A stretch of 51,835 bases of DNA, taken from assembly GCA_947648765.1 (NCBI GenBank), contig CANSOY010000005.1, forward strand, positions 1 through 51,835. The letters are read 5' to 3'. Shown piece after piece: positions 32,984-48,883 of this stretch. The notes beneath the pieces are model-generated. The model was given only the letters and a program-made list of their open reading frames with translations. It had not been told where the DNA came from and did no database searches. The translations under genes were made by a program, and so were the position numbers. This stretch comes from an uncultured Clostridium sp. Lineage in GTDB: Bacteria; Bacillota; Clostridia; TANB77; CAG-508. The stretch's first letter is position 1, and each line of letters starts with the position of its first letter.

Positions 32984-34978
32984 TTGAAAAAGAAAAAAAT
33001 TCGTTTTCTTGTAATTCCGCTTCTTATCTTGGCTATTCTCCTTGTGGCTTTGGGCGTCTTTTTCGTCTTTCGTGAGCCAAAAAGCGAATTAAAAACAATT
33101 CGTTCGCAAAAAGAATTGGAAAAAATTTATGAGGGGAAACAAACTGCAACCAAAGAGTTTTGGACTTATGTTTTTGGTATGCCTTTTTCCTTTTTAGCAC
33201 AAATTCCAAGTCCTCTTGCGGGTTCTTCGATTGACATGGCTGTCAATGATGCGACTTCTAGCACCATTGGTCCAAGTTCGATTTCTGGTGTAGAAAGTTC
33301 TACTTCAAAAGACTTTTCGAAAACCAATATCCAAGTAGAAAATGTGGATGAAGCAGATATTACCAAAACTGATGGCGATTATATTTACTCGCTCTCTGGT
33401 ACAGACGTTATGATTACGGATGTGCGCAATCCAGAGAATTTACAAGTGGTTTCTCGCATTTCATCGAATAGCACAGTAGCACCAGAGGATTTAATTTTAG
33501 CCGGAAATCATTTGGTGGTTATTTCTTCGGATACTTCCGCTCGTAGCCAAACTGCTACTTCGGTTCGTATCTATGATATTCATAACAAAGAAAAACCTAG
33601 TCTTGTGAAAAGTTTTACGTTATATGCCCCATACTATACTTCACGCTATATGAATAACAAACTCTATGTAATCTCATCTGGCTATCTTCACAAAGAGGAT
33701 GGAAAAATATTGATTCATTACACAGAAGATTTTGCTTCTCGAGAAATCCCATTAAATCATATGCAGTACTTTACGGACGTTCCTTCTCGTAAGCAAACCC
33801 TTATATCCATGGTGGATTTAACCAAGCCAACAGAGAATATCCATCTAAATTCGTATTTCTTAGACATTTCTAATTCGTATGTGTCTGAACACAATATTTA
33901 TTTGTTTGACCAAGATTATGAGTATGGAAATTATGCTCCACCAATTTCTTCTCTTTTTGGGTTGAAAGGAGCAATCGGTCCTTTTGTGTATAACTCCGAT
34001 GATTTATATACCAGTCGTTCCATCACAAAAGTATCGAAGTTTAAGATTTTAGAAGATGGCTCCATTTCCTTTGCCACACAGGGAAAAGTGGAAGGAAAGA
34101 CCATCAATCAATATTCTTTTGACGAGCATAATGGTCAATTAAGATTGGCTTTATATGATTTCCAAGGTTCTCGTATTGTTATCTTGGACGAAAACTTGAA
34201 GGAAATTGGCAAAACGCTTGATTTAGCCAAAGGCGAAACCATGTATTCTTCTCGTTTTATGGGAGATAAAGCATATCTTGTTACTTACCAAACGGTGGAC
34301 CCATTGTATGTTGTAGATTTATCTGACCCTACTCATCCTCGTGCTCTTGGCGAATTAAAAATTCCTGGATATAGTACTTATCTTCATCCTTATGACGAGA
34401 ACCATATCATTGGAATTGGAATGGAAACACAGGAAAATGTAGTGCGTGATACCAGTGGAAAAGTGCTTCGTACAACCTCTACGATTGTTGGTATGAAAAT
34501 GGCTTTGTTTGATGTTTCCGATGTAGCAAACCCAGTTCAAGTTTCGAGTACCATCATTGGCGACCGTCGCACAACTTCTGCTATTTTAACCAATCCAAAG
34601 GCTTTACTGTTCTCAAAAGAAAAAGAATTGATTGCAATTCCAATTAACAATTTTGCAGAGGATTTTGGTATTTCTTCATCAGCTACCAGTTACGCTTCTG
34701 TTGTTCAGTCTTACACCAACTATGCAAAACCTTACATTTCAGAGGGTTATGCTGTTTACCGTATCAATCTGCAAGAAGGCTTTACCTTAAAAGGTGTTAT
34801 TACACATGAAAAAACCACTACCAGAAATTACTGGCGTAACAATTCAAAATTATTACGTGGATTATATATCGGCCAAGATTTGTTTACAGTTTCGGAAAAT
34901 GGTATTAAGGTAAATGATTTAGATTCTCTTACATTAAAGAATGAGCTTGTATTTTCGGCTCGTTCCAACCATTCTTAA
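32984..34978 (+). CDS. secreted beta-propeller domain protein
   Basis: A 664-aa protein with an N-terminal anchor or uncleaved signal (about 6-29) and a large beta-propeller belonging to the group marked by NVDEADITKTDGDYIYSLSG (Beta_propel). Repeats such as VMITDVRNPENLQVVSRI, VRIYDIHNKEKPSLVKSF, LYVVDLSDPTHPRALGELKI and MALFDVSDVANPVQVS are the propeller blades. The family is common in clostridia and archaea; function unknown, probably at the cell surface. The start is TTG at 32984 with AAAGGAGG 8 bases upstream. It is followed 15 bp later by the DUF4190 gene. Confidence 0.88.
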   Translation: MKKKKIRFLVIPLLILAILLVALGVFFVFREPKSELKTIRSQKELEKIYEGKQTATKEFWTYVFGMPFSFLAQIPSPLAGSSIDMAVNDATSSTIGPSSISGVESSTSKDFSKTNIQVENVDEADITKTDGDYIYSLSGTDVMITDVRNPENLQVVSRISSNSTVAPEDLILAGNHLVVISSDTSARSQTATSVRIYDIHNKEKPSLVKSFTLYAPYYTSRYMNNKLYVISSGYLHKEDGKILIHYTEDFASREIPLNHMQYFTDVPSRKQTLISMVDLTKPTENIHLNSYFLDISNSYVSEHNIYLFDQDYEYGNYAPPISSLFGLKGAIGPFVYNSDDLYTSRSITKVSKFKILEDGSISFATQGKVEGKTINQYSFDEHNGQLRLALYDFQGSRIVILDENLKEIGKTLDLAKGETMYSSRFMGDKAYLVTYQTVDPLYVVDLSDPTHPRALGELKIPGYSTYLHPYDENHIIGIGMETQENVVRDTSGKVLRTTSTIVGMKMALFDVSDVANPVQVSSTIIGDRRTTSAILTNPKALLFSKEKELIAIPINNFAEDFGISSSATSYASVVQSYTNYAKPYISEGYAVYRINLQEGFTLKGVITHEKTTTRNYWRNNSKLLRGLYIGQDLFTVSENGIKVNDLDSLTLKNELVFSARSNHS

Positions 34979-35262: not shown

Positions 35263-35298
35263 CAAAAGCCCAGTACACGCTTGTACTAGGCTTTTTCT
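35263..35298. terminator. bidirectional terminator
   Basis: AAAAGCC(c)AGTAC / GTACTaGGCTTTTT, between DUF4190 (+) and the HtrA-like gene (-). Confidence 0.8.
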
Positions 35299-36427
35299 AT
35301 TGTTTTTTTTCGAGTGTTACGGATATTTCTTTTTCTGTATTTCTTCGTAATAGTTTTATGGTTATGGTATCTCCCGGATTTTTTGTGTAGATATATTCAC
35401 GTAAGTGGCACATTTTTTGCATTTCTTTTCCGTCAATGTGAGTAATGACATCTTTTTTGAAAATTCCTGCTTTTTCTGCTGCTGAGCCTGCTATAACATT
35501 TTCTACATAAATTCCGGCTTGCCAGTTTAGTTCTTCCTCTAAATAGGGAAGCACATTTTTATCAAAGGCAAAAATGCCAAGGCTTGCTTCTTCAAATTGA
35601 TTGGTTTGCTCTAATTTTGCTAAAATTGGCTTTACCAAGTTGATTGGCACAGCAAAGCCAATTCCTTCTGCTGACGTTATTTTTATCGTGTTAATTCCAA
35701 CCACTTCTCCATTTGCATTGATAAGCGGTCCTCCGCTATTGCCTGGATTGATGGTCGCATCCGTTTGAATTAAATTGCTCATATAGATTTCTTGGTTATT
35801 TTCAGTGAATTTAATGGTTCGGTCTTTCGCACTTACAATTCCTTTGGTAACCGTTTTTTGAAATTCGTAGCCAATCGGGTTTCCAATCGCATATACTTCG
35901 CTTGCGATTTTTATTTCTTCCGAATTTCCAATTTGTGCATAAGGAAATAGTCCTCCACTAATTTTCAAGATGGCTAAATCGAGGTTGTTGTCCGACCAAA
36001 TGACATCTGCTTTATATTGATTTCCTAAATCCAATGTTACATAGCAATTACTATATTTTTCTCCTGCTACATGGGCATTGGTTAGAATATATCCTTTTTC
36101 GGATACTAAAATTCCGCTTCCTAGCCCTAATTCACTTGTGCTTTCTGTACGAAAAATGGTGCTCTCCGTATTTCTCAATTTTGAGATTCCAACAACAGCA
36201 TGGTTAATTTGTTCAATTTTTTCTTGGATAGTGGTTTCTTCTTTTCGATCTGCTTGCTGTATCGTTGCACTGGTTCGTATTCCTTGAACCACACTCATTT
36301 CTTCTTTTTCGATTTCGTCAAAGGCTAAATAACTAACCACAAAAGTTCCAAATCCTACACCTAAAATACAGATTGCGATTATGATTTTTAAGATGGCTTG
36401 CTTTTTCGAGATATGATAATATTCCAT
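35297..36427 (-). CDS. HtrA/DegP-like S1C serine protease with PDZ domain
   Basis: A 376-aa membrane-anchored protease for damaged envelope proteins. Anchor helix about 12-34; trypsin-like domain with the triad H119 (LTNAHVAG), D150 (NNLDLAIL) and S231 (NPGNSGGP); C-terminal PDZ domain (about 275-370; GIYVENVIAGSAAEKAGIFKKDVITHIDG). Length and layout are typical of Bacillota HtrA with one PDZ. AAAGGAG precedes the ATG. Single gene. Confidence 0.93.
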   Translation of the reverse strand: MEYYHISKKQAILKIIIAICILGVGFGTFVVSYLAFDEIEKEEMSVVQGIRTSATIQQADRKEETTIQEKIEQINHAVVGISKLRNTESTIFRTESTSELGLGSGILVSEKGYILTNAHVAGEKYSNCYVTLDLGNQYKADVIWSDNNLDLAILKISGGLFPYAQIGNSEEIKIASEVYAIGNPIGYEFQKTVTKGIVSAKDRTIKFTENNQEIYMSNLIQTDATINPGNSGGPLINANGEVVGINTIKITSAEGIGFAVPINLVKPILAKLEQTNQFEEASLGIFAFDKNVLPYLEEELNWQAGIYVENVIAGSAAEKAGIFKKDVITHIDGKEMQKMCHLREYIYTKNPGDTITIKLLRRNTEKEISVTLEKKQ

Positions 36428-36514: not shown

Positions 36515-38218
36515 TTATTTTGTTTTTTGGATTTCTACATATCTTTTTACTTTTTGTGTCGTGGTTTTAGCAAGTGGTTCTTCTGAAATAATGACTTCTT
36601 TAATATGCTTTACGGCTGGTAGCGTTTCATTGATTTTTTGCACTTCTTTCCATACAATTTCTTTTTTCTCTTCTTGCGTTTTTCCTTCGAGTGCATTTTC
36701 ACTGCATACAACTTTTGCACATAAACTGGTATCCATCGAGTTTCGGTTTCGTGCAAATACCATACTTTCTTCTACCATGTCCAGTTTATTGATTAAAAAT
36801 TCTAGTTCTTGTGGGTAAATGTTTTTTCCGTTTTTCAAAACAATAATATCGCTTTTTCTGCCGGAGATGTATAGATATCCCTTTTTATCTAAGTAACCAA
36901 AATCTCCAGTTGAGAACCAACCATCGTGCATTGTTTTTTTCGTGGCTTCTTCGTTTTCATAATAGCCGAGCATAACACTTGGTCCCTTGACTGTAATTTC
37001 TCCTATACCATCACTGTCTGGGTCTACAATCTTTAATTCCAAATTGGATAGCGGAAATCCAATCGAACCTGGCTTTTTCTTAGTATCGCTTTCGCAAGAA
37101 ACAACAGGCGAGGTTTCGGTTAGTCCATAGCCTTGTACTAATTCAATTCCGAAATCGTTAAAGCCTTGGATAATCTTTTTATCGAGTGGTGCCGCTCCGA
37201 CAAAGACAATTCGCAAATACCCGCCTAATTGGTCTAGAATTGGTTTGAATACTTTTCTTCGGATATCAATTCCGAGTTTGGCTAATATTTTAGTTAATCC
37301 AATCATGAATTTGATTAACTTGGTTTTGCCTTGTTCTTCAATCCCTTTCCAGATTTTTTTGTGCATACTTTCTAAGATGAGTGGCACGCCAATAAATGCA
37401 CTTACTTGGAATTCTTGCATATTTTTGGGAATACTTTTTAGACCTTCACAAAAGGCAATCGTGGAGCGGAAGTAGGTTCCCACTAAGAAGGTTATGGTAC
37501 ATTCTAAGGTATGATGAATTGGCAAGATGGAAAGTAGAGTATCGGTTGGTAACATACGAGAATACATACCGATTGCCTGTACATTGGAGCAAATATTTCT
37601 TTGGGATAGCATAACCCCTTTTGGTGTGCTTGTGGTTCCTGAAGTAAAGAGAATGATGGATATTTTTTCTGGGTCGATGGTTATTGCTTCATATGCTCGG
37701 TTTCCGTCTTTACGCATCTTTCTTCCTCTTAATCGTAGTTCTTCATAGGAAATACAGTCTGCTTCTGTGGTTTCGTCCATGACGATAATATGTTTTAATT
37801 GGCTATCTTTTGTATTTTTGATAGCTGAAATATATTTTGCTTCACATACTACCGCTTCTGCTCCGCTTCTTTGAAGTAAGGATTGCAATTCATTTTCTGG
37901 CAAGGCTTTATCTAATGGAACAATGATCATATCACCGGTTGTAACAGCAAGATAAGTCGTACACCATTCATATCGATTACTACTAATCAAGGCAATTTTT
38001 TTACCTTGCAAGCCTAAGTCAAGAAGACTGGTGCTAAGTGCTTCAATATCTTTTTTGAAAGTGGAGTAGGTTTTGCACACATATTCTATGTTTTCTTTGT
38101 CGTATTTGATTTTGTATTTGTAGGCAATGTGGCTTGGGTCTACTTTTTCAGTTCTAGCAATGAGTTCTCGAAAATCTCGAATTGGTTCTGCTTCATAAGA
38201 GGCTCTTTTATCTTTCAT
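36515..38218 (-). CDS. AMP-forming acyl-CoA synthetase / long-chain fatty acid ligase-like
   Basis: A 567-aa ANL-superfamily enzyme that would adenylate a carboxylate (probably a fatty acid) and pass it to CoA or a carrier. Motifs: ILFTSGTTSTPKG (phosphate-binding loop), LVQGYGLTETSPVV, DGWFSTGDFGYLD, GRKSDIIVLKNGKNIYPQELE, and the C-terminal catalytic lysine in TTTQKVKR. I start at the ATG at 38218 (GGAAGGTG upstream); the ORF extends 21 codons further without a site. It is divergent from the peptide synthetase and could supply the acyl group for its first condensation domain; this is inference. Confidence 0.88.
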   Translation of the reverse strand: MKDKRASYEAEPIRDFRELIARTEKVDPSHIAYKYKIKYDKENIEYVCKTYSTFKKDIEALSTSLLDLGLQGKKIALISSNRYEWCTTYLAVTTGDMIIVPLDKALPENELQSLLQRSGAEAVVCEAKYISAIKNTKDSQLKHIIVMDETTEADCISYEELRLRGRKMRKDGNRAYEAITIDPEKISIILFTSGTTSTPKGVMLSQRNICSNVQAIGMYSRMLPTDTLLSILPIHHTLECTITFLVGTYFRSTIAFCEGLKSIPKNMQEFQVSAFIGVPLILESMHKKIWKGIEEQGKTKLIKFMIGLTKILAKLGIDIRRKVFKPILDQLGGYLRIVFVGAAPLDKKIIQGFNDFGIELVQGYGLTETSPVVSCESDTKKKPGSIGFPLSNLELKIVDPDSDGIGEITVKGPSVMLGYYENEEATKKTMHDGWFSTGDFGYLDKKGYLYISGRKSDIIVLKNGKNIYPQELEFLINKLDMVEESMVFARNRNSMDTSLCAKVVCSENALEGKTQEEKKEIVWKEVQKINETLPAVKHIKEVIISEEPLAKTTTQKVKRYVEIQKTK

Positions 38219-38281
38219 TTTTTCACCTTCCTGTTTTATTTTTTCTGTTTTTATTCTATCGAAAAAGTACTTTTTGCGCAA

Positions 38282-38443: not shown

Positions 38444-38881
38444 ATGAAAGAAAATTTTTACCCTTTGACTGCTCCACAAAAATCGATTTATGCAACGGAG
38501 CAATACTTTGCAAATACGGCTATCAATACCATTTGTGGTTATACCTTTATCACAGATGTTGTGGATTTTGATGTTTTGCAAAGGGCAATTTATGAAATGG
38601 TAAAAAGTAATGATGCAATGCGTTTCAGGCTAGCGGAAGATGGCAATTCTGTTTCACAATTTGTTCGCAGTTTCGAGCCTTTTCCCATTGCTCTAGTAGA
38701 CCTTGCGTCTAAAGAGGATTTAGAAAAGAAAGCACTGGAAATGGCAAATACTCCTTTTATTCAGACAAGTCAGTATTTGTTTCAATTCTTGTTTTTTAGA
38801 CTTCCAGATGGCTCTGGTGGTTTTATTGTAAATGTCCACCATTTCATTCGGGGACTCTTGGTCTTTGGGGTTAATTGCTAA
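38444..38881 (+). pseudogene. 5' part of the NRPS gene: N-terminal half of the first condensation domain
   Basis: Codes for LTAPQKSIYATEQYF up to VNVHHFI, the first half of a starter-type condensation domain. It then shifts out of frame within the catalytic HHxxxD motif and stops 13 codons later. Removing one G from CGGGG at about 38850-38854 joins HHFIR to DSWSLGLIAKE in the downstream frame and restores HHxxxDxWS. AGGAGG before the ATG at 38444 marks the true start of the whole gene. Confidence 0.85.
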
Positions 38882-41800
38882 AGAAGTAACCACCATTTAT
38901 TCCGAATTGCTTTCTGGAACTTATATCGAAAAAAATTATCCTTCTTACTTGGATTATATCCAAGCGGAGGAAACCTATTTACAAAGTGATAAATACCAAA
39001 AGGATAAATTATATTGGGATACGCAATTTCAAACCATTCCAGAGATTGCTTCTCTTAGTGTGCGTCAAGCAAAGGAAAAAGAGATTACTTGTGCAGGAGC
39101 TCGTGCAAAGTTTTCTTTCTCTGCCGAGGATTTAGCAGAGGTTCGTGCTTTTTGCGACTCGCATAAGATTTCGGTTTATAACTTTTTTATTGCCGTGTAT
39201 TCGTTTTATGTTTCGCGCGTTAGCAATTTATCTGATTTTGTGATTGGTACGCCAATCTTAAATCGTACCAATTTTGACCAAAAACATACAATGGGTATGT
39301 TTATTAACGTTGCGCCTTTACGCGTAGCAGTAAATGAGCAAGTTTCTTTTGTGGATTTTGCAAAACACATTAGTGTTGATACCATGTCCATTTTTAGACA
39401 TCAACGTTATTCTTACCAAACCGTTTTGGAGGATATCCGAAAAAGAGATGCTTCCATTCCGAATTTATATAACGTGGTTCTTTCTTACCAAATTACCAAA
39501 ACAACGGAAGAAAGTAACCATATCCATTATTCAACGGATTGGATTTTTAATGGTAATGCTTCGGATGAATTACAAATTCATATGTTTGATTTGAACGAAG
39601 CCTCGAATATGACGGTTGCTTATGATTACAAAACAAGTGCATTTTCTGCGGATGAGGTTGCTTCTATCCATCACCGAATTGTAACCATTATGAAGCAAGT
39701 TATCTCCGATGAGGCAGTTTTGCTACAAGAACTTGAAATTGTTACACCAGAGGAAAAAACACAAATTTTAGCGGATTTTAATGATACTTTCGTAGACTAT
39801 CCACGTAACCAAACCATTGTAGATTTATTTGAAAAGCAAGTAGAAAAAACGCCAAATGAAATTGCAGTTGTTTTTGAAGATCAAAAACTAACTTACCGAG
39901 AATTAAATAAAAAAGCAAATGCTTTGGCAAAAGTTTTATTGCAGAAAAATGTTCAAGTAGGAGATATTGTCGCCATTTACTTACATAAATCTCTTGAAGT
40001 AGTAGTATCCATGTTTGCTATTCTAAAAGCAGGTGCTGCTTTTTTGCCACTTGATACTGACTATCCAAAAGACCGCCTTGATTATATCCTACAGAACTCT
40101 ACGCCAAAATTGATTTTATCTTCCAAGGATTTAGCACCAGACCTTTCACTTCCGCTTCTGTTGGTAGATTTAGCCGAAGATTTTTATACGACGCAAGAGA
40201 AAAATAATTTGCACTTAGCACTTACGCCAGAAAACCTTATGTATGTGATGTACACTTCTGGTTCTACTGGAAATCCAAAAGGCGTTATGGTAAAGCATAA
40301 AAATATTATTCGTTTGGCAGCTTTTCCAAATTTCATTACATTTGCTGAAAAAGAAGTAATGGTACAAACCGGTACCATTGTATTTGATGCCTGCATTTTT
40401 GAGATATTTGGCTGTTTATTGCACGGCTTTTCATTACATATTTTGAAGAAAGAATTTCTTTTGGATACTTTCTCTTTTGCTGATTTCTTAGAGAAACAAA
40501 AGGTTACTATTTTGTTTTTAACAACAGGATTATTCAATCAATTTGGATTGCAACACCCATCTATGTTTCAACATCTCAACTATTTATTAACTGGTGGAGA
40601 TGTTATTTCCAAAGAGAGTATGCAAAAAATTCTGGCTTGTAATCCGAAACTAAAAATCATTAACTGCTACGGGCCTACGGAAAACGGCTCTTATTCTACT
40701 TGCTATCCAATCCATGGAGATGAAAAAATCATTCCGATTGGAAAGCCAATTACCAATTCTACTGTTTATGTTGTACAACAAAATCACCTATGCCCTGTTG
40801 GCGTTCCTGGCGAACTATGGGTGGGTGGCGACGGACTTGCCAAAGGATACTTCCATCGCCCTGATTTAACACAGCAGCAATTTATTGCCAATCCTTTTGG
40901 CGAAGGAATGCTTTACAAAACAGGCGATTTGGTAAAGTGGTTGCCAGATGGAAATTTAGAATTTTTAGGAAGAATCGATAATCAAGTAAAAGTTCGTGGC
41001 TTCCGCATTGAACTTTCTGAAATTGACCGAAAAATTTTATTAGATACCAGTATTAAACAATCTTTGACAGTTGTAAGAAATATTCATCAATCAAAGGTCA
41101 TTTGTTCTTATCTTGTATCTGACCGAGAAATTTCAATCAAAGACTTAAAAGCCACTTTGGCAAAGTCTTTGCCAAGTTATATGATACCTGCTTTTATCAT
41201 GCAACTACCTGCTTTTCCACTGAATATCAATGGAAAAACAGATGTAAAAGCATTTCCTTTACCAGATGAAACAAACCTTCGTAAAGAAATTGTACCCGCT
41301 CGAAACGAACTCGACACTTTACTAATCCATACATTAGAAAAAGTATTACAAATTACCAATATTAGTTTGGCAGACTCATTCTTTGAATTAGGTGGCGACT
41401 CCTTATCTGCTATCTCATTTACACTTTTCTTGTCACAGGATTTAGGACTTCAAATTACCGTAAATGATGTTTTTCATTATCCTGTACTCCAAGATTTATC
41501 GGATTATATCGCAACCTTATCCAAAGAAACCATAACATCGGCTATCAAACCTGCTTCTAAGCGAGAATATTATCCAACTTCAAATGCACAAAGAAGAATT
41601 TACTATGCTTCTAGTATGGAGCAAAATTCAATCTTATATAATACAGCAGGTGGCATTATTGTTGACAAAGTGCTGGATATTCCTTTGTTACAAAAATGTT
41701 TTCAAACTTTAATTACTCGTCACGAAGTTTTACGTACTCGTTTTTGTATGATGGCGGAAAATATTGTTCAAGTAGTCGAAGACCACGTAGATTTTACCTT

Positions 41801-44800
41801 GTCTTATGAAAAACAAATCGTAACCGATGACTTTCATACGATTTATACCAATTTTGTGAAGCCATTTGATTTATCGAGTGCACCTTTGCTTCGTGCAAAA
41901 GTAGTAGCCTTACCAGAGAACAAAATGCTACTTTTATTAGATATGCACCATATTATCAGTGATGGTACTTCTTTAAGCATTTTACTACAAGAACTTTGCG
42001 ATTTATATAATGGAAAAATATTACCAGAAAAGCAAATTGGTTACAAAGATTTTTCTTTGTGGGAAAGAGAACAGTTAAAAACAGAAGAATACCAACAAGC
42101 AAAAGATTTTTGGGTAAGCCAATTTGAAAGTGAAATTCCTTTATTAAATATGCCAACCACTTTCCCAAGACCTTCTTTGCAAAGTTTTGAAGGAGCAAAT
42201 TATTACACCAACCTATCTTCTGAAATGTTTGAAAAAATCAATATCGTTGCAAAGCAATTAGGAATTACACCATATATGTTCATGCTTTCTGCCTTTTATA
42301 TTTTGCTTTCAAAATATACTTCGCAAGACGATATTGTTATTGGTACTCCAGTGGCGAACCGTGAATTACCAGAACTTTCGCAAATGATTGGGATGTTTGT
42401 TAATACCCTTGCTTTACGAAATAAAGTAGACCATTCCATTTGTTTTGCAGATTTCACAAAACAGATAAAAGATTACTGCTTATCTGCTTTTGCTAACCAA
42501 GCCTATCCTTTTGATGAATTGGTGAAAGCGTTAAATGTCAAAAGAGATCCGAGTCGAAATCCTTTATTTGATGTGATGTTTATTTACCAGAATAATGGTT
42601 ATCCAACTATTCATTTTGACGACACACAAGCAGAATACTTTATTCCAAATGGAAATGTTTCAAAATTTGATTTAAGTTTAGAAATTATTCCTACGGAAAA
42701 GCAGTTTTCACTACGTTTTGAATATGGCACTAAATTATTTAGTGAAGATTTTATCCAAAAGTTTGCCAACCATTATATCAATGTTTTAACAACAATTTTG
42801 GAAAATACCGCGATTAAAATAGCAGATATTGACCTTCTTTCGCCAGAAGAAAGAATTCAGATATTGCAAAATTTTAATGCTACTGATTTAGCACTTCCAG
42901 AAAAGAAAAGCATTGTCGATTTATTAGAAGAACAAGTTGAAAAAACACCAGACCGAATTGCACTTGTTTTTGAAAATCAGAAACTAACTTATCGTGAGTT
43001 TAATGAAAAGGCAAATGCTTTAGCAAGGTTCTTAGTAGAACAAGGAATTTCCCGTAATTCCATTGTTGGCATTATGCTTCCTCGTTCTTTGGAAATGATG
43101 ATTAGTATTTTTGCAATTCTAAAATCTGGTGCTGCTTATTTACCAATCGACCCGACTTATCCTAAAAATCGAATTACTTATATTGTAAAAGATAGTAATT
43201 TGAAAATACTTTTAACAAAAGATAATTCTTTATTTTTGAAAAATATTGATACCATTGATGTTTCCTTAAAGACTAGTAAAATCTATGATACCTATGGGAA
43301 ACAAAATTTGAAACTTTCCATTTTACCAGAAGATTTATCCTATATTATTTATACTTCTGGTTCTACTGGAAATCCGAAAGGTGTTAAATTAAAACATTTA
43401 TCTTTGCTTAATTTGGTTTACCACTGCAATAATTATGTAGAGTATTTGAAGAATAACAGTTATCGTTCTGTTGTTTCAATTACAACGGTTAGTTTTGATA
43501 TTTTCATTTTTGAAACTCTCATTTCTTTGCAACGAGGATTAAAATTAGTCATTGCCAATGAACGAGAAAAAGATGTTCCTGCTCTTTTAGATCAGCTAAT
43601 TGAAAAAGAAAAAATTGAAATTATCCAAACAACACCTTCTCGTATGCAAATTTTTTGCAGTAATTTGCAAGATATGCCACATTTTCATAATTTGAAATTT
43701 ATTACACTTGCAGGCGAACAATTACCAATTTCATTAGCAAAATCCTTAAAGGCTGCTACTGATTGTACCATTTATAACGGATATGGTCCAAGTGAAACAA
43801 CTGTGTTTTCGACTCTTACTGATGTTACCAATAAAGATTTTATGACAATCGGAAAACCACTTGCCAATACACAAATTTATATCTTAAATCCAGACCATCA
43901 AGCCTGTCCAGTTGGTGTTCCTGGTGAAATTTGTATTAGTGGAAATGGTGTCGGTTATGGTTATATTGGAAAAGATGATTTAACCCAAAAATCTTTTATT
44001 CCAAATCCATTTCTTCCATCTTCTACTTTGTATCGAACAGGAGATTTAGGATATTACCAAGAAAATGGAGAAATTGTTTGTTTAGGAAGAATTGACCATC
44101 AGATCAAAATTAGAGGTTTACGAATTGAGTTAGATGAAATTGAAAAAATTATTTTGAGTTTCAAAGGAATTGAAAAAGTCGTTGTTACTACCAGTACCGG
44201 TTCGTTAAATCGCCAGATTTTGTGTGCTTACTTTATCGCTAAGAGTAGAGTTTCGATTTCAGAATTAAAACAATATATTGCTATGTTTTTACCAAATTAT
44301 ATGGTGCCAACTTATATCGCACAATTAGCAGATTTCAAATATACACCAAATGGAAAGGTAGATAAAAAAGCATTACCAGAACCTACTTTTGCAAATGAAA
44401 AGAAATATTATAAAGCACCAAAAACCAATACAGAATATATGCTTCTTCAAATCTGGGAAAGCCTACTTTGCATTTCTCCGATTAGCACCTCGGATAATTT
44501 CTTTGATATTGGTGGCGACTCTCTACTTGCGATTAAAATGCAAATGGAATTATTGCGACAAAACATCAATATTTCATACGCTGAAATCTTTAAGTATAAT
44601 ACCATTCATAGTTTAGCTGCTATGATTGATAAAACACTTAATATTACCGATGACTTGCCAAATTTATTCGATTTATATGACTATTCTAATATTGACCATT
44701 TGTTGCAAGAAAATATTCATCGCAATTTAACCAATCTTTCGGTTCAACCGATTGGCAATGTTTTGCTAACTGGTGTAACTGGATTTTTGGGAATTCATCT

Positions 44801-45869
44801 TCTTGCTTATTTACTGGAAAATACGGATGTTAAAATTTATTGCTTAATCCGAAAAGACCCAAGCACTTCTTTAGTAGACAAGATTTTGCGAAAATTGCAT
44901 TACTACTTTGGCGAAAAATATGATGCTTTTGTTCAAAAACGTATTATTGCAATTAACTCCGATTTAAGCAAAAATAATTTGGGACTTACCAGCGAAAAAT
45001 TGAGTACATTAAATGAGCAAATCTCTTGTGTGATTAACTGTGCTGCGATTGTAAAGCATTATGGAAATTACAAAGATTTTGAAAAAATCAATGTAATTGC
45101 TGTTAAGAAGTTAGTGGATTTCTGCAAAAAATACCATAAAAAATTAGTGCAAATTTCTACCTTAAGTGTTTCGGGTAATACGATGTTTGATTTTGCCATG
45201 AACCAACAAAAATATGATACAAATGTTACTTTTAACGAGTCTAATTTATACATCGGTCAATCTTTAGAAAATGTTTATGTACGAAGTAAATTTGAGGCAG
45301 AAAAAATAATTTTGACAGAAGTTTATCAGAAAAAACTTGATGCACTTATTTTAAGAATTGGAAATATTACCAATCGTTTTTCAGACGGAAAGTTCCAGCA
45401 AAATGCGAGTGAAAATGCTTTTGCCAATAAAATAAAAGCATTTATGGAAATTGCTGCACTTCCAGATTATGTCATGGATAAATATATGGAGTTTAGTCCT
45501 GTGGATTGTGTGGCAGAAGCTGTTATCAAAGCGATTGAACACGCAGATACCAATGTTTCTGTACTCCATATCTATAACCCAAATCATGTTTACTTAAAAG
45601 ACTTTGTCCAATTATTACCGCCTCAATATGCCTTGGCGGTTGTCCAAGAGAAAGAATTCAAAAATATTATTGACAACTTGTTGAAAAACGATGAAAAAAG
45701 GTATATCATTTCTAATATACTGAATGATTTAGACAGTGAGCGTAAATTAGTTTATGATACCCAAATCAATATTCAAAGTAAATTTTCACAAAATTTCTTA
45801 AAACAAAGTAATTTTACCTGGCCTACTATTACCAAGGAATACATTGAAAATTTATTAAAAAATTTATAA
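38832..45869 (+). CDS. dimodular nonribosomal peptide synthetase with terminal thioester reductase (C-A-T-C-A-T-R)
   Basis: Joined to the preceding fragment this is a roughly 2470-aa assembly line. Domains by nucleotide: rest of C1 (DSWSLG at 38854), A1 (about 39810-41280; YTSGSTGNPKG, YKTGDLVKW, GRIDNQVKVRG), T1 (GGDSL near 41391), C2 (41570-42850; HHIISDG), A2 (42900-44400; YTSGSTGNPKG, YRTGDLGYY, GRIDHQIKIRG), T2 (GGDSL near 44511), and R (from 44760; LTGVTGFLG NAD(P)-binding loop, YVRSK near 45278). Family knowledge: a starter C plus a terminal R gives an N-acyl dipeptide aldehyde. Aligned by eye with GrsA, the A1 pocket reads D-A-F-F-L-G-C-S-Y, suggesting an aliphatic or aromatic residue; A2 reads D-I-F-Q-T-A-G-V-F, which I cannot assign. 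No phosphopantetheinyl transferase is in the window. Confidence 0.9.
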   Translation: MSTISFGDSWSLGLIAKEVTTIYSELLSGTYIEKNYPSYLDYIQAEETYLQSDKYQKDKLYWDTQFQTIPEIASLSVRQAKEKEITCAGARAKFSFSAEDLAEVRAFCDSHKISVYNFFIAVYSFYVSRVSNLSDFVIGTPILNRTNFDQKHTMGMFINVAPLRVAVNEQVSFVDFAKHISVDTMSIFRHQRYSYQTVLEDIRKRDASIPNLYNVVLSYQITKTTEESNHIHYSTDWIFNGNASDELQIHMFDLNEASNMTVAYDYKTSAFSADEVASIHHRIVTIMKQVISDEAVLLQELEIVTPEEKTQILADFNDTFVDYPRNQTIVDLFEKQVEKTPNEIAVVFEDQKLTYRELNKKANALAKVLLQKNVQVGDIVAIYLHKSLEVVVSMFAILKAGAAFLPLDTDYPKDRLDYILQNSTPKLILSSKDLAPDLSLPLLLVDLAEDFYTTQEKNNLHLALTPENLMYVMYTSGSTGNPKGVMVKHKNIIRLAAFPNFITFAEKEVMVQTGTIVFDACIFEIFGCLLHGFSLHILKKEFLLDTFSFADFLEKQKVTILFLTTGLFNQFGLQHPSMFQHLNYLLTGGDVISKESMQKILACNPKLKIINCYGPTENGSYSTCYPIHGDEKIIPIGKPITNSTVYVVQQNHLCPVGVPGELWVGGDGLAKGYFHRPDLTQQQFIANPFGEGMLYKTGDLVKWLPDGNLEFLGRIDNQVKVRGFRIELSEIDRKILLDTSIKQSLTVVRNIHQSKVICSYLVSDREISIKDLKATLAKSLPSYMIPAFIMQLPAFPLNINGKTDVKAFPLPDETNLRKEIVPARNELDTLLIHTLEKVLQITNISLADSFFELGGDSLSAISFTLFLSQDLGLQITVNDVFHYPVLQDLSDYIATLSKETITSAIKPASKREYYPTSNAQRRIYYASSMEQNSILYNTAGGIIVDKVLDIPLLQKCFQTLITRHEVLRTRFCMMAENIVQVVEDHVDFTLSYEKQIVTDDFHTIYTNFVKPFDLSSAPLLRAKVVALPENKMLLLLDMHHIISDGTSLSILLQELCDLYNGKILPEKQIGYKDFSLWEREQLKTEEYQQAKDFWVSQFESEIPLLNMPTTFPRPSLQSFEGANYYTNLSSEMFEKINIVAKQLGITPYMFMLSAFYILLSKYTSQDDIVIGTPVANRELPELSQMIGMFVNTLALRNKVDHSICFADFTKQIKDYCLSAFANQAYPFDELVKALNVKRDPSRNPLFDVMFIYQNNGYPTIHFDDTQAEYFIPNGNVSKFDLSLEIIPTEKQFSLRFEYGTKLFSEDFIQKFANHYINVLTTILENTAIKIADIDLLSPEERIQILQNFNATDLALPEKKSIVDLLEEQVEKTPDRIALVFENQKLTYREFNEKANALARFLVEQGISRNSIVGIMLPRSLEMMISIFAILKSGAAYLPIDPTYPKNRITYIVKDSNLKILLTKDNSLFLKNIDTIDVSLKTSKIYDTYGKQNLKLSILPEDLSYIIYTSGSTGNPKGVKLKHLSLLNLVYHCNNYVEYLKNNSYRSVVSITTVSFDIFIFETLISLQRGLKLVIANEREKDVPALLDQLIEKEKIEIIQTTPSRMQIFCSNLQDMPHFHNLKFITLAGEQLPISLAKSLKAATDCTIYNGYGPSETTVFSTLTDVTNKDFMTIGKPLANTQIYILNPDHQACPVGVPGEICISGNGVGYGYIGKDDLTQKSFIPNPFLPSSTLYRTGDLGYYQENGEIVCLGRIDHQIKIRGLRIELDEIEKIILSFKGIEKVVVTTSTGSLNRQILCAYFIAKSRVSISELKQYIAMFLPNYMVPTYIAQLADFKYTPNGKVDKKALPEPTFANEKKYYKAPKTNTEYMLLQIWESLLCISPISTSDNFFDIGGDSLLAIKMQMELLRQNINISYAEIFKYNTIHSLAAMIDKTLNITDDLPNLFDLYDYSNIDHLLQENIHRNLTNLSVQPIGNVLLTGVTGFLGIHLLAYLLENTDVKIYCLIRKDPSTSLVDKILRKLHYYFGEKYDAFVQKRIIAINSDLSKNNLGLTSEKLSTLNEQISCVINCAAIVKHYGNYKDFEKINVIAVKKLVDFCKKYHKKLVQISTLSVSGNTMFDFAMNQQKYDTNVTFNESNLYIGQSLENVYVRSKFEAEKIILTEVYQKKLDALILRIGNITNRFSDGKFQQNASENAFANKIKAFMEIAALPDYVMDKYMEFSPVDCVAEAVIKAIEHADTNVSVLHIYNPNHVYLKDFVQLLPPQYALAVVQEKEFKNIIDNLLKNDEKRYIISNILNDLDSERKLVYDTQINIQSKFSQNFLKQSNFTWPTITKEYIENLLKNL

Positions 45870-45884
45870 ACAAAGGATGAGAAA

Positions 45885-47690
45885 ATGATGAGTGGAATTG
45901 TGAATTTAATCATGTTAATTATGGCTGCTATTATTACTTTTGTCTTATTTTTATTTATGAAGCGAAATACAACAAAAAGCCAATTAACACGTACTTTTAC
46001 TTGGAATATTATCTTAATTCTTATTTGGATTATCCCTTTAATTTTTCAAGTATTATTAACAGAAAAATTACATATTTCACCCATTGTTTTCGAGTACTTT
46101 ACTTATGTTGGCACTTGCTTTTTACCGGTTTCGTTATTTTTTACAAGTTTAGTATTTGCCAACACCAAAATTAAATTTAAAGATGCTCATTTGCTTTTGT
46201 TTATTGTTCCAGTCATTTCTCTATGTGTCTTGTGGACAAATAATGTCCATCATTTATTTTATGAAATTTATTCTACAAATTTAGAAGAAACCGTAACTGG
46301 ACCATATACCATTGTTCATTTCATTTATACATATGGACTATTTGATTTAGCCCTTAGTATTTTTTTGAGATACTCGATTAAAAACGCCGGGTTCTTTTCA
46401 AGGCAATCTATCTTAATCCTTTTAGGTGCTTTGATTCCAATTGTCGTTAATATTTTAGGAACATTTAATATTATTCCAATGACCATATACATCACACCAA
46501 TTTGCTTTACATTTACTATGTTTTTCTTTGCACTTGCTATTTTCAAATTCAAGTTTTTGAGTTCAACTCCAATCGCTTTGCAAAGAATTGTAGACCGTAT
46601 GTCCGATAGTTATGTTGTCTTAGATGAAAACAATACGGTTTTGGATTTCAATGAAACTTTTTTGAAAACATTTGGTCTAAATGCAACAACAACTAGAAAT
46701 CGAGATTTTATTAAATTAGTACAACTTAGTCAATCGACTTTAGATGAATTGGTATTGACTTTACAAAAGTCTAGAAAATCTTCTAAAACGTTTACGTTTG
46801 AAAAGGCTTTTGAGCGTTTGAATAAATATTTCCATGTTGAAGTCAATAGTATTACAAACCAAGGAAATTTTTTAGGAACCCTCATTCTTTTCAAAGATAT
46901 TACACAGCATATTGAGGATATGAATACCATTAAAGAAAATCAAAATCTATTAACTGAACGAGAACGTCTTGCTTCTTTAGGACAAATGATTGGTGGTATC
47001 GCACACAACTTAAAAACACCAATTATGTCCATTTCTGGAGCAGCAGAAGGTCTTACCGATTTAGTAAAGGAATATGATATTTCCATCGGAGATCCAGAAG
47101 TAACCAATCAAGACCACCACGATATTGCCAAAGATATGTATACTTGGATTGGAAAGATTAAAGAATACACCGAATATATGTCAGATGTTATTACTGCTGT
47201 TAAAGGGCAAGCTGTTGTTATGTCAGAACAAGATTCTTACCATTTCACTGTAGATGAATTGGTAAAACGTGTTTCGATTTTAATGCGTCATGAATTGAAA
47301 AATGCTCTTGTTAATCTGAAAACAACCATTGAAATTGATAAAGATACACAACTAAAAGGAAATGTTAATAGTTTAGTACAAGTTATTAACAATATGATCT
47401 CCAATAGTATTCAAGCCTATAACGGAAAAACAGACGAGAATATTGAATTTACCATTTCAAAGGATAATTCCCATGTTATTCTTTCAATCAAAGATTATGC
47501 TGGTGGACTTCCAAAAGAAGTAGCAGATAAGTTATTCAAAGAAATGATAACAACCAAAGGAAAAAACGGAACTGGACTAGGATTATTTATGTCTTATTCC
47601 AATATTCGTGCCCATTTTAACGGAAATATTACCGTTGACACAGAAGAAGGAGTTGGCTCTACTTTTCATATTTACTTGCCAATCGAATAG
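45885..47690 (+). CDS. sensor histidine kinase with 7TM N-terminus and PAS domain
   Basis: A 601-aa kinase: N-terminal seven-helix membrane sensor (about 5-225, 7TMR-HK type), PAS (about 230-345; SDSYVVLDENNTVLDFNETF), dimerisation domain with phospho-accepting His about 373 (GGIAHNLKTPIMS), and ATPase domain (NMISNSIQAY, DYAGGLP, GTGLGLFMS). It starts 16 bp after the synthetase stop with AAAGGATGAG upstream, and a terminator follows, so it is co-transcribed with the NRPS. The partner is probably the HD-GYP regulator encoded next. It may sense an envelope or small-molecule cue related to the product; that is inference. Confidence 0.92.
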   Translation: MMSGIVNLIMLIMAAIITFVLFLFMKRNTTKSQLTRTFTWNIILILIWIIPLIFQVLLTEKLHISPIVFEYFTYVGTCFLPVSLFFTSLVFANTKIKFKDAHLLLFIVPVISLCVLWTNNVHHLFYEIYSTNLEETVTGPYTIVHFIYTYGLFDLALSIFLRYSIKNAGFFSRQSILILLGALIPIVVNILGTFNIIPMTIYITPICFTFTMFFFALAIFKFKFLSSTPIALQRIVDRMSDSYVVLDENNTVLDFNETFLKTFGLNATTTRNRDFIKLVQLSQSTLDELVLTLQKSRKSSKTFTFEKAFERLNKYFHVEVNSITNQGNFLGTLILFKDITQHIEDMNTIKENQNLLTERERLASLGQMIGGIAHNLKTPIMSISGAAEGLTDLVKEYDISIGDPEVTNQDHHDIAKDMYTWIGKIKEYTEYMSDVITAVKGQAVVMSEQDSYHFTVDELVKRVSILMRHELKNALVNLKTTIEIDKDTQLKGNVNSLVQVINNMISNSIQAYNGKTDENIEFTISKDNSHVILSIKDYAGGLPKEVADKLFKEMITTKGKNGTGLGLFMSYSNIRAHFNGNITVDTEEGVGSTFHIYLPIE

Positions 47691-47692
47691 AG

Positions 47693-47738
47693 AAAAACGG
47701 AGGATATTCGTCAAAAATATCTTCCGTTTTTGATTTTT
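47693..47738 (+). terminator. terminator of the NRPS-kinase operon
   Basis: AAAAACGGAgGATATT / AATATCTTCCGTTTTT stem with T tail. Confidence 0.85.
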
Positions 47739-47830: not shown

Positions 47831-48883
47831 GTGAGAAAAAGTATTCAGGAAACACCTTCTACTGGCTATCGTATCTTAGCAGTTGATGATGAAGAAGGTA
47901 TTGTTGACTCTTTATCCATCCTTCTAAAACGATCTGGTTATGAATTTATTGGTATAACGGATCCAGTGGAGGCTATTGAAAGAGTTAGAAATGAACACTT
48001 TGACCTTATGGTATTAGACTTTATTATGAGTCCGATTCATGGCGATAAGGTTGTTGAAGAAATTCGTAAATTTAATAAAGATTTATATATTTTATTATTA
48101 ACCGGACACAAGGACCTTGCTCCTCCTCTTGACACCATCCGTCGTTTAGATATTCAAGGATATTGTGAAAAGAGTGATAAGTTTGACCAGTTGCTTTTGC
48201 TCATTGAGTCTGGCATAAAATCCATTTCTCAAATGAATGAGATTAAGAAAATTAACAAAGAATTAACTGGTATGTATGAGAAACTAGAGCAAGCCTATAT
48301 GGAAAGTATCCAAACTTTAAGGTTTGCCGTTGAAGCAAAAGATGCCTATACACGAGGACATTCTGATCGTGTTTCGGAATATTCCATTTTAATTGGGAAA
48401 CACTTAGGATTATCTGCAGAAGATATTAAAACATTAAAAGTTGGCGGATTATTCCATGATATTGGTAAAATTGGTATTCCAGATAGTATTTTGCGAAAAG
48501 AGTCTAGACTAGACGATAGTGAATATTCGCAAATTAAAAACCATCCATCCATTGGTGCACATATTCTTTGCAATGCGGAGATTTTCCGTGAGATTATCCC
48601 GATTGTAAAACACCATCACGAGAAATATGATGGTACTGGATATCCAAGTAGATTAGCTGGAGAAAATATTCCATTTTTAGCCAGAATTGCCGCTGTTGCA
48701 GATACTTTTGATGCCATGTCTTCTCGAAGAACTTATCGTGATGCGCTACCGATTGATGTGGTAAAAGCTGAAATTACTCGTTGCTCTGGTACACAATTCG
48801 ATCCACAAATTGCAAAAGCCTTTTTAGAGATTTTGGAAACGAAATACGATAAAATTCAAGAAATTCAAAGAAAATATAGTTAA
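47831..48883 (+). CDS. response regulator with HD-GYP output domain
   Basis: A 350-aa protein. Receiver domain (about 13-130) has the acidic pair VDDE, phospho-acceptor D63 (MVLDFIM) and the conserved Lys in YCEKSDKF. A coiled linker follows, then an HD-GYP domain (about 160-345) with HSDRVSEYS, HD in LFHDIGKIGIPD (about 208-209), HHHEKYDGTGYP (GYP about 270-272) and ADTFDAMSSRRTYR. HD-GYP domains usually hydrolyse cyclic di-GMP. Start GTG with GGGGTG upstream. It is the likely target of the upstream kinase. Confidence 0.92.
   Translation: MRKSIQETPSTGYRILAVDDEEGIVDSLSILLKRSGYEFIGITDPVEAIERVRNEHFDLMVLDFIMSPIHGDKVVEEIRKFNKDLYILLLTGHKDLAPPLDTIRRLDIQGYCEKSDKFDQLLLLIESGIKSISQMNEIKKINKELTGMYEKLEQAYMESIQTLRFAVEAKDAYTRGHSDRVSEYSILIGKHLGLSAEDIKTLKVGGLFHDIGKIGIPDSILRKESRLDDSEYSQIKNHPSIGAHILCNAEIFREIIPIVKHHHEKYDGTGYPSRLAGENIPFLARIAAVADTFDAMSSRRTYRDALPIDVVKAEITRCSGTQFDPQIAKAFLEILETKYDKIQEIQRKYS

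What the first reader, a model, noticed from the sequence alone, without database searches (positions are those of the whole stretch)
38444..45869. Gut-type NRPS predicted to release a dipeptide aldehyde
C-A-T-C-A-T-R architecture with a starter C domain and a reductase end is the form known from gut clostridia to make N-acylated dipeptide aldehydes, which can inhibit cysteine or serine proteases or cyclise to pyrazinones. The A2 pocket reading (D-I-F-Q-T-A-G-V-F) is one I cannot assign, so the product may be new.
Basis: partly seen in the sequence, partly recalled or inferred. Interest (0 to 1): 0.75.

Follow-up and report, generated by a model that had tools for sequence, protein, structure and literature searches.

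The report
NRPS paired with its own kinase
The gut bacterium's peptide-aldehyde assembly line is real (although its first domain is split by a frameshift here), but the larger finding is that throughout its bacterial order this enzyme is almost always kept beside a membrane sensor kinase whose sensing part changes in step with the enzyme's amino-acid choice, which suggests it makes a cell-to-cell signal rather than mainly a host-protease poison.

Summary
The NRPS is real: C-A-T-C-A-T-R, nearest to AusA. It is not one intact ORF. A frameshift splits it inside C1's HHxxxD motif (38444-38881 / 38832-45869); close relatives are intact. The A2 code DIFQTAGVF is read correctly, but it recurs throughout the clade.

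A 7TM-PAS histidine kinase starts 15 bp after the NRPS stop, followed by an HD-GYP response regulator. Among 292 genomes of the family, NRPS and kinase are both present in 209, both absent in 75 and discordant in 8. All 139 family-type loci with room have the kinase directly downstream (median gap 12 bp). The pairing persists in other families of the order.

The sensor covaries with the last module's A code and with R, after controlling for the kinase domain. The kinase domain itself does not. A second, unrelated sensor class paired with one-module NRPSs shows the same. Two loci nearly identical in C1, kinase domain and regulator differ across the block from A1 to the sensor, like comQXP pherotypes.

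Best reading: a signalling cassette, rpfF-rpfC-rpfG-like in logic, whose signal is a nonribosomal peptide aldehyde. No experiment supports this yet. Linkage of A2, R and sensor is not fully excluded.

The parts
38444..38881 (+). N-terminal part of condensation domain C1 (first frame, ends in the HHxxxD motif)
   Evidence: ORF; Pfam Condensation positions 2-141; ribosome-binding-like AGGAGG upstream
38844..38860 (+). Frame change inside the C1 HHxxxD[A/S/G] motif (short G run)
   Evidence: sequence; intact in L168 (HHLIGDS)
38832..45869 (+). Main NRPS frame, 2345 aa: rest of C1, A1, T1, C2, A2, T2, R
   Evidence: ORF; Pfam
39801..41276 (+). Adenylation domain A1, code DAFFLGCSY
41325..41513 (+). 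Thiolation domain T1 (LGGDS)
41562..42863 (+). Condensation domain C2 (HHIISDG)
42888..44381 (+). Adenylation domain A2, code DIFQTAGVF
44400..44650 (+). Thiolation domain T2 (IGGDS)
   Evidence: two PP-binding stretches
44745..45866 (+). Terminal thioester reductase R, AusA-like, NAD(P)-binding and YxxxK motifs intact
45885..47690 (+). Histidine kinase directly downstream: 7TM sensor (aa 1-228), PAS (229-343), HisKA/HATPase (344-601)
   Evidence: Pfam HisKA_7TM, PAS, HisKA, HATPase_c; AF2 models, pLDDT 82.7 whole and 93.6 sensor alone
47693..47731 (+). Terminator-like hairpin (16 pairs plus T tract) closing a probable NRPS-kinase operon
   Evidence: consensus scan only
47831..48883 (+). Response regulator with HD-GYP domain (putative c-di-GMP phosphodiesterase; HD, HHE..DG.GYP and acceptor Asp present)
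   Evidence: Pfam Response_reg plus HD_5; NosR-type c-di-GMP PDE model below cut-off; sequence

Best explanation
The locus is a small-molecule signalling cassette. The NRPS makes a short, probably N-acylated, peptide aldehyde. The 7TM-PAS histidine kinase encoded immediately downstream in the same probable operon senses that product, or a close derivative, from the cell surface. It then passes phosphate to the HD-GYP response regulator, which lowers cyclic di-GMP. The identity of the last amino acid loaded by the NRPS and the receptor's sensing domain evolve together, so different species carry different signal-receptor types (pherotypes). Shown here: domain content, order-wide pairing, joint gain and loss, and covariation of the sensor, but not the kinase domain, with the last module and R. 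Inferred: aldehyde release, acylation, ligand binding, phosphotransfer to this regulator, and c-di-GMP output. In this particular assembly C1 is frameshifted, so the window's own copy may be silent or may be a sequencing casualty.
For: (1) Joint presence and absence in 292 genomes of the family: both 209, NRPS only 4, kinase only 4, neither 75. One NRPS-only genome (G040) has the kinase cut by its contig end. 19 genera hold NRPS+ and NRPS- species, and 71 of their 74 NRPS- species also lack the kinase. The response regulator tracks too: 207/6/17/62. (2) Control: the divergent neighbour gene, an acyl-CoA ligase, is matched in 292/292 genomes and is not linked. (3) Adjacency: 139 of 139 family-type loci with room have the kinase directly downstream, median gap 12 bp. 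In four other families of the order 18 of 20 kinase loci have an NRPS-R directly upstream, even where the kinase domain is only 31-36% identical. (4) Covariation: in 68 two-module loci, sensor distance controlled for kinase distance correlates with A2 code (0.43), A2 (0.43) and R (0.51), but not with A1 code (0.05); kinase-domain distance does not correlate with A2 code (-0.04) or A2 (-0.15) once the sensor is controlled. In 14 of 14 pairs with similar sensors but diverged kinase domains the A2 code is the same (background 241 of 2125, p 8.5e-14); the A1 code shows nothing. (5) Replicate in a second, unrelated sensor class (26 loci, one-module NRPS): sensor vs code 0.37, p 0.0005; kinase vs code not significant. 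That class never occurs with multi-module NRPSs, 0/15 against 75/82. (6) Allele-swap block: L093 and L168 are 87% identical in C1, 97% in the kinase domain and 98% in the regulator, but 38-50% in A1, A2, R and the 7TM sensor. (7) Residues covarying with the A2 code concentrate in helices 1-3 of the sensor, most in their outer halves (N-out topology inferred).
Against: No product, binding or phosphotransfer has been measured. A2, R and the sensor are neighbours on the chromosome, so co-transfer by recombination could produce part of the covariation; once both A2 and R domain distances are controlled, the 9-residue code adds nothing (0.02). Some pairs with the same A2 code have different sensors. 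The regulator is adjacent in only 94 of 137 loci and absent from the f5 loci. The Mantel and MI tests handle shared ancestry only through kinase and regulator distances. Nearly all genomes are MAGs. The window's own C1 is frameshifted.
Confidence: 0.68

Rival explanations
1. Host- or competitor-directed protease inhibitor: the product is a secreted peptide aldehyde that inhibits host or bacterial proteases, and the kinase merely switches on the cluster in response to an unrelated environmental cue.
For: Gut NRPS products of this type are known dipeptide aldehydes and protease inhibitors (ruminopeptin and the Fischbach-group compounds, reviewed in PMC12327764). The R domain is AusA-like.
Against: A cue unrelated to the product would not make the sensor covary with the last module's specificity and R. 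The regulator has an HD-GYP output and no DNA-binding domain, so it is not an obvious cluster activator.
Confidence: 0.15
2. Pure linkage: NRPS and kinase form one mobile or recombining operon; sensor and A2-R move together only because they are adjacent, with no ligand relationship.
For: Adjacent genes with a 12-bp gap; the code effect is not separable from A2 plus R distances.
Against: C1, about 5 kb away, tracks the sensor better than the nearer C2 does (partial r 0.40 vs 0.13). The kinase domain, also adjacent to the sensor, does not track A2. At equal R divergence, with A2 diverged, loci with the same A2 code have closer sensors, and L085/L120 share sensor (76%) and code while A2 is 58% and R 53% identical. 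Linkage alone does not explain joint loss in 19 genera or retention with a replaced kinase domain in f5.
Confidence: 0.12
3. Self-protection or envelope monitoring: the kinase senses damage done by the reactive aldehyde, or the aldehyde itself, to protect the producer.
For: Producer-linked kinases are common for antimicrobial clusters (general knowledge); the sensor still appears ligand-matched.
Against: No transporter or detoxification gene was seen between the NRPS, the kinase and the regulator in the window, and the output domain is HD-GYP.
Confidence: 0.05

Closest known systems
RpfF-RpfC-RpfG (DSF system of Xanthomonas; PMC5391125, PMC3749722)
   Same: Same three-part logic: signal synthase, multi-TM histidine kinase, HD-GYP response regulator.
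   Different: The synthase is an NRPS with a reductase end instead of the DSF synthase RpfF; the sensor is HisKA_7TM-PAS or another membrane sensor; no sequence homology of synthase or sensor is claimed.
ComQXPA pherotype system of Bacillus subtilis (PMC4408185)
   Same: Signal-making genes and the sensor part of the kinase are polymorphic in step, with conserved flanks: here an A1-to-sensor block between conserved C1 and conserved kinase/regulator.
   Different: The signal is nonribosomal rather than a modified ribosomal peptide; the output is HD-GYP rather than a DNA-binding regulator.
Gut dipeptide-aldehyde NRPSs (ruminopeptin rup and the Fischbach-group clusters; PMC12327764)
   Same: Short NRPS ending in a reductase, from gut Clostridia, with a predicted N-acyl dipeptide aldehyde.
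   Different: Relatives outside the order (L242, L243, L245) sit next to an acyl-CoA ligase and have no such kinase at the locus. In this order the constant partner is a histidine kinase.
AusA of Staphylococcus aureus (aureusimine/phevalin)
   Same: Closest named NRPS model (1628 bits, cut-off 2500) and second-closest solved R domain.
   Different: AusA is A-T-C-A-T-R without a starting C domain (general knowledge); no linked kinase is known to me.

Membership tests
Gut dipeptide-aldehyde NRPS | C-A-T-C-A-T-R architecture | tested here: met
   Pfam; but in two frames in this assembly, one frame in L168
Gut dipeptide-aldehyde NRPS | Intact SDR-type terminal reductase related to aldehyde-releasing R domains | tested here: met
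   Motifs; nearest solved R domains 6vtj then AusA, ahead of MxaA. Two- versus four-electron release itself was not tested, and no tree was built
Gut dipeptide-aldehyde NRPS | Starter C that N-acylates the first residue | tested here: inconclusive
   C1 weakly similar to all solved C domains; motif HHxxxD[A/S] in the clade; frameshifted in the window
Gut dipeptide-aldehyde NRPS | Peptide aldehyde product | not testable with these tools
   needs heterologous expression and mass spectrometry
Synthase-sensor kinase-HD-GYP signalling system (Rpf-like logic) | Synthase gene, multi-TM histidine kinase and HD-GYP regulator encoded together | tested here: met
   Window genes; 139/139 loci for the kinase, 94/137 for the regulator nearby
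Synthase-sensor kinase-HD-GYP signalling system (Rpf-like logic) | Kinase detects the synthase's product | not testable with these tools
   Only indirect support: covariation of sensor with last module and R
RpfF-RpfC-RpfG (DSF) family proper | RpfF enoyl-CoA-hydratase-type synthase | tested here: not met
   The synthase position is held by an NRPS; so the cassette works like, but is not, an Rpf system
ComQXPA-type pherotype system | Polymorphic signal and sensor segments between conserved flanks | tested here: met
   L093/L168 and related pairs. The ComX/ComQ components are absent, so this is an analogy and not membership

The most novel reading that the evidence does not exclude
An entire order of uncultured gut Clostridia communicates with nonribosomal peptide aldehydes. 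Each species' NRPS and its own membrane kinase form a matched signal-receptor pair, new pairs arise by swapping a block from A1 to the sensor, and the last-module code together with the receptor sequence can be read as a pherotype code. On this view the gut 'protease-inhibitor' aldehydes of this clade are primarily bacterial pheromones.
Probability: 0.55. Interest if true: 0.92.

Novelty: new variant of a known kind. Interest (0 to 1): 0.82.

Why it matters
Why gut Clostridia so often carry short reductase-terminated NRPSs is, to my knowledge, unsettled; known members are discussed as host-protease inhibitors (PMC12327764). A receptor gene that is gained and lost with the NRPS, and that covaries with its specificity, turns this into a directly testable question, giving a candidate ligand-receptor pair in each of about 200 species searched. 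If true, it would be a large family of nonribosomal-peptide pheromone systems with cognate kinases and readable pherotypes, and would offer orthogonal sensors for gut bacteria. Literature searches found no description of this pairing, but only open-licence papers are held and Guo et al. 2017 could not be read.

Tried and rejected
Acyl-CoA ligase 36515-38281 as the dedicated acyl supplier: rejected as specifically linked, since homologues at the same threshold occur in 292/292 genomes including those without the NRPS. A direct effect of the 9-residue A2 code beyond the A2 and R domains: not separable (partial r 0.02). A1 code as a determinant of the 7TM sensor: no support (0.05, ns). Fold search of the whole kinase: only soluble kinase/PAS matches; sensor alone: only weak, non-significant GPCR-like 7-helix matches, TM-score about 0.4-0.6, best E 0.005, not used as evidence of homology. 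C1 typing by solved relatives: inconclusive. Promoter-like matches: no more than in shuffles. The Guo 2017 paper is not held. Palindrome search upstream of the NRPS: nothing notable. Two- versus four-electron R phylogeny: not done as a tree, only nearest-neighbour ranking.

Full report
WHAT WAS CLAIMED AND WHAT IS THERE. The finding named a C-A-T-C-A-T-R NRPS at 38444-45869. Pfam confirms two condensation, two adenylation and two carrier domains and a terminal NAD_binding_4 reductase. They lie in two overlapping frames, 38444-38881 and 38832-45869. The frame changes within the C1 catalytic motif: 'NVHHFIR' belongs to the first frame and 'GDSWSLGLI' to the second. The closest relative found, L168 (69% identity in R), has one 2466-aa frame and reads HHLIGDS there. 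The break is therefore peculiar to this assembly. One assembly cannot tell a real mutation from an error. It is the only condensation-domain gene found in this 1.67-Mb, 112-contig genome. A PPTase-like ACPS gene exists, with one in-frame TAG in the match.

CHEMISTRY. The A codes are DAFFLGCSY (A1) and DIFQTAGVF (A2). The first resembles codes I remember for branched aliphatic residues; the second I cannot assign either. It is not special to this locus: close variants (DIFQ[TVMI]AG[VI]F) occur as first, last or only modules in many relatives, and about 30 distinct codes occupy the A2 position, so modules have been reshuffled. The R domain has its cofactor and catalytic motifs. Its nearest solved relatives are the archaeal M. 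ruminantium PCP-R and AusA R, ahead of MxaA, and NCBIfam's best whole-protein model is AusA. Two-electron release of an aldehyde is the likely outcome but was not tested. C1 as an acylating starter domain is plausible and unproven; the clade's C1 motif is mostly HHxxxD[A/S] and C2's is HHxxxDG.

THE MISSED PARTNER. Fifteen bases after the NRPS stop begins a 601-aa histidine kinase with a HisKA_7TM sensor, a PAS domain and a full catalytic core. A terminator-like hairpin follows it, then a response regulator with an HD-GYP domain. AlphaFold2 gives seven membrane helices for the sensor (pLDDT 93.6, pTM 0.89).

THE PAIRING IS NOT CHANCE. Searches with the R domain and with the kinase over the same 292 genomes of the family (39 genera) each hit 213. 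The overlap is 209; 4 have only the NRPS, 4 only the kinase, and 75 neither. Nineteen genera contain both NRPS+ and NRPS- species, and 71 of the 74 NRPS- species in them also lack the kinase. The regulator behaves similarly, with 17 genomes keeping it alone. The divergent neighbour, an acyl-CoA ligase, served as a control: it matches in 292 of 292 genomes. Of the fetched family-type loci with at least 2.5 kb beyond the NRPS, 139 of 139 have the kinase directly downstream, median gap 12 bp. In other families of the order 18 of 20 kinase loci have the NRPS-R directly upstream. In one of these families (f5) the sensor is 30-40% identical to the window's (35-40% in all but one locus) and the kinase domain only 31-36%, as if the kinase core had been exchanged under a retained sensor; no HD-GYP regulator is adjacent there. 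Outside the order the relatives L242, L243 and L245 carry an acyl-CoA ligase beside the NRPS and no such kinase at the locus.

THE SENSOR FOLLOWS THE PRODUCT END OF THE NRPS. In 68 two-module loci, sensor distance, with kinase-domain distance controlled, correlates with R (0.51), A2 (0.43), A2 code (0.43) and C1 (0.40), weakly with C2 (0.13), and not with A1 code (0.05). Kinase-domain distance, with sensor distance controlled, does not correlate with A2 (-0.15) or A2 code (-0.04). At every matched kinase distance, same-A2-code pairs have closer sensors. Among pairs with similar sensors (distance <0.42) but diverged kinase domains (>0.22), 14 of 14 share the A2 code against 241 of 2125 otherwise; the A1 code shows no such effect. 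The signal along the kinase peaks at residues 41-90, helices 2 and 3, and is higher in the outer than in the inner halves if the N-terminus is outside; that topology is inferred.

REPLICATE AND SWAPS. A second sensor class (about 670 aa, no HisKA_7TM match, a weak HAMP match in some) sits behind one-module C-A-T-R enzymes only: 15 one-module and 0 multi-module, against 7 and 75 for the 7TM class, p 1e-12. Two of those seven one-module exceptions are cut by contig ends. In 26 loci of the second class, sensor distance again follows the A code (0.37, p 0.0005) and R (0.54), and kinase distance does not. L093 and L168 are nearly identical at both ends (C1 87%, kinase 97%, regulator 98%) but 38-50% identical across A1, A2, R and the 7TM sensor (C2 65%), with different codes. 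This is the pattern of a swapped specificity block, as described for comQXP pherotypes (PMC4408185).

HOW IT MOST LIKELY WORKS. Shown: the parts, their order, their joint inheritance and the covariation. Inferred: the NRPS makes a lipid-like peptide aldehyde; the membrane sensor binds it near the outer ends of its first helices; the kinase phosphorylates the HD-GYP regulator; c-di-GMP falls. GGDEF-domain genes exist in the genome. The closest logic is rpfF-rpfC-rpfG, with an NRPS in the synthase position.

LIMITS. A2, R and sensor are physically adjacent, and the code effect vanishes once whole-domain A2 and R distances are controlled, so linkage contributes to an unknown extent. Ancestry is controlled only through kinase and regulator distances; the permutation and MI statistics are not tree-based. 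The regulator is not always adjacent. Nearly all data come from MAGs of uncultured gut Clostridia (record titles name rabbit, chicken, goat, sheep and mouse material). From memory I would guess a GTDB lineage such as CAG-508/TANB77, but this was not tested. Twelve of 88 two-module relatives are also split over more than one frame, so breaks in these genes are not rare. The library searched holds only open-licence papers, so absence of a prior description is not proof of novelty.

Noticed in passing
L054, L070, L074, L077, L078, L080, L089, L129, L164, L193, L232, L246: 12 of 88 two-module NRPSs in relatives are spread over more than one frame, several with a C-terminal ORF of 1560-1740 aa; either split genes, MAG errors or frequent inactivation.
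   Followed up: no
L250-L258 (family f5): Sensor mostly 35-40% identical to the window's, kinase domain only 31-36% identical, and no HD-GYP regulator next door: the kinase core and output seem to have been replaced while the NRPS-sensor pair was kept.
   Followed up: partly
G233 loci L083, L084, L085; G264: G233 carries three NRPS, three kinase and three regulator matches, i.e. probably three cassettes; G264 has five R-domain and four kinase matches but one regulator.
   Followed up: no
L242:10840-12552, L245:10432-11994, L243:5416-7074: In relatives outside the order the NRPS is flanked by an acyl-CoA ligase instead of a kinase, as expected for acyl-starter peptide aldehyde clusters.
   Followed up: partly
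window 35297-36427 (-): HtrA-like serine protease with PDZ, found near the cassette in 13 of 20 loci first fetched; whether it relates to a protease-inhibiting aldehyde was not tested.
   Followed up: no
17 genomes, e.g. G010, G043, G055, G081, G108: The HD-GYP regulator is present without NRPS or kinase, so it may have other inputs.
   Followed up: no
window 32984-34978 (+): 664-aa protein with no NCBIfam match, conserved in only two of the 20 relatives first fetched.
   Followed up: no
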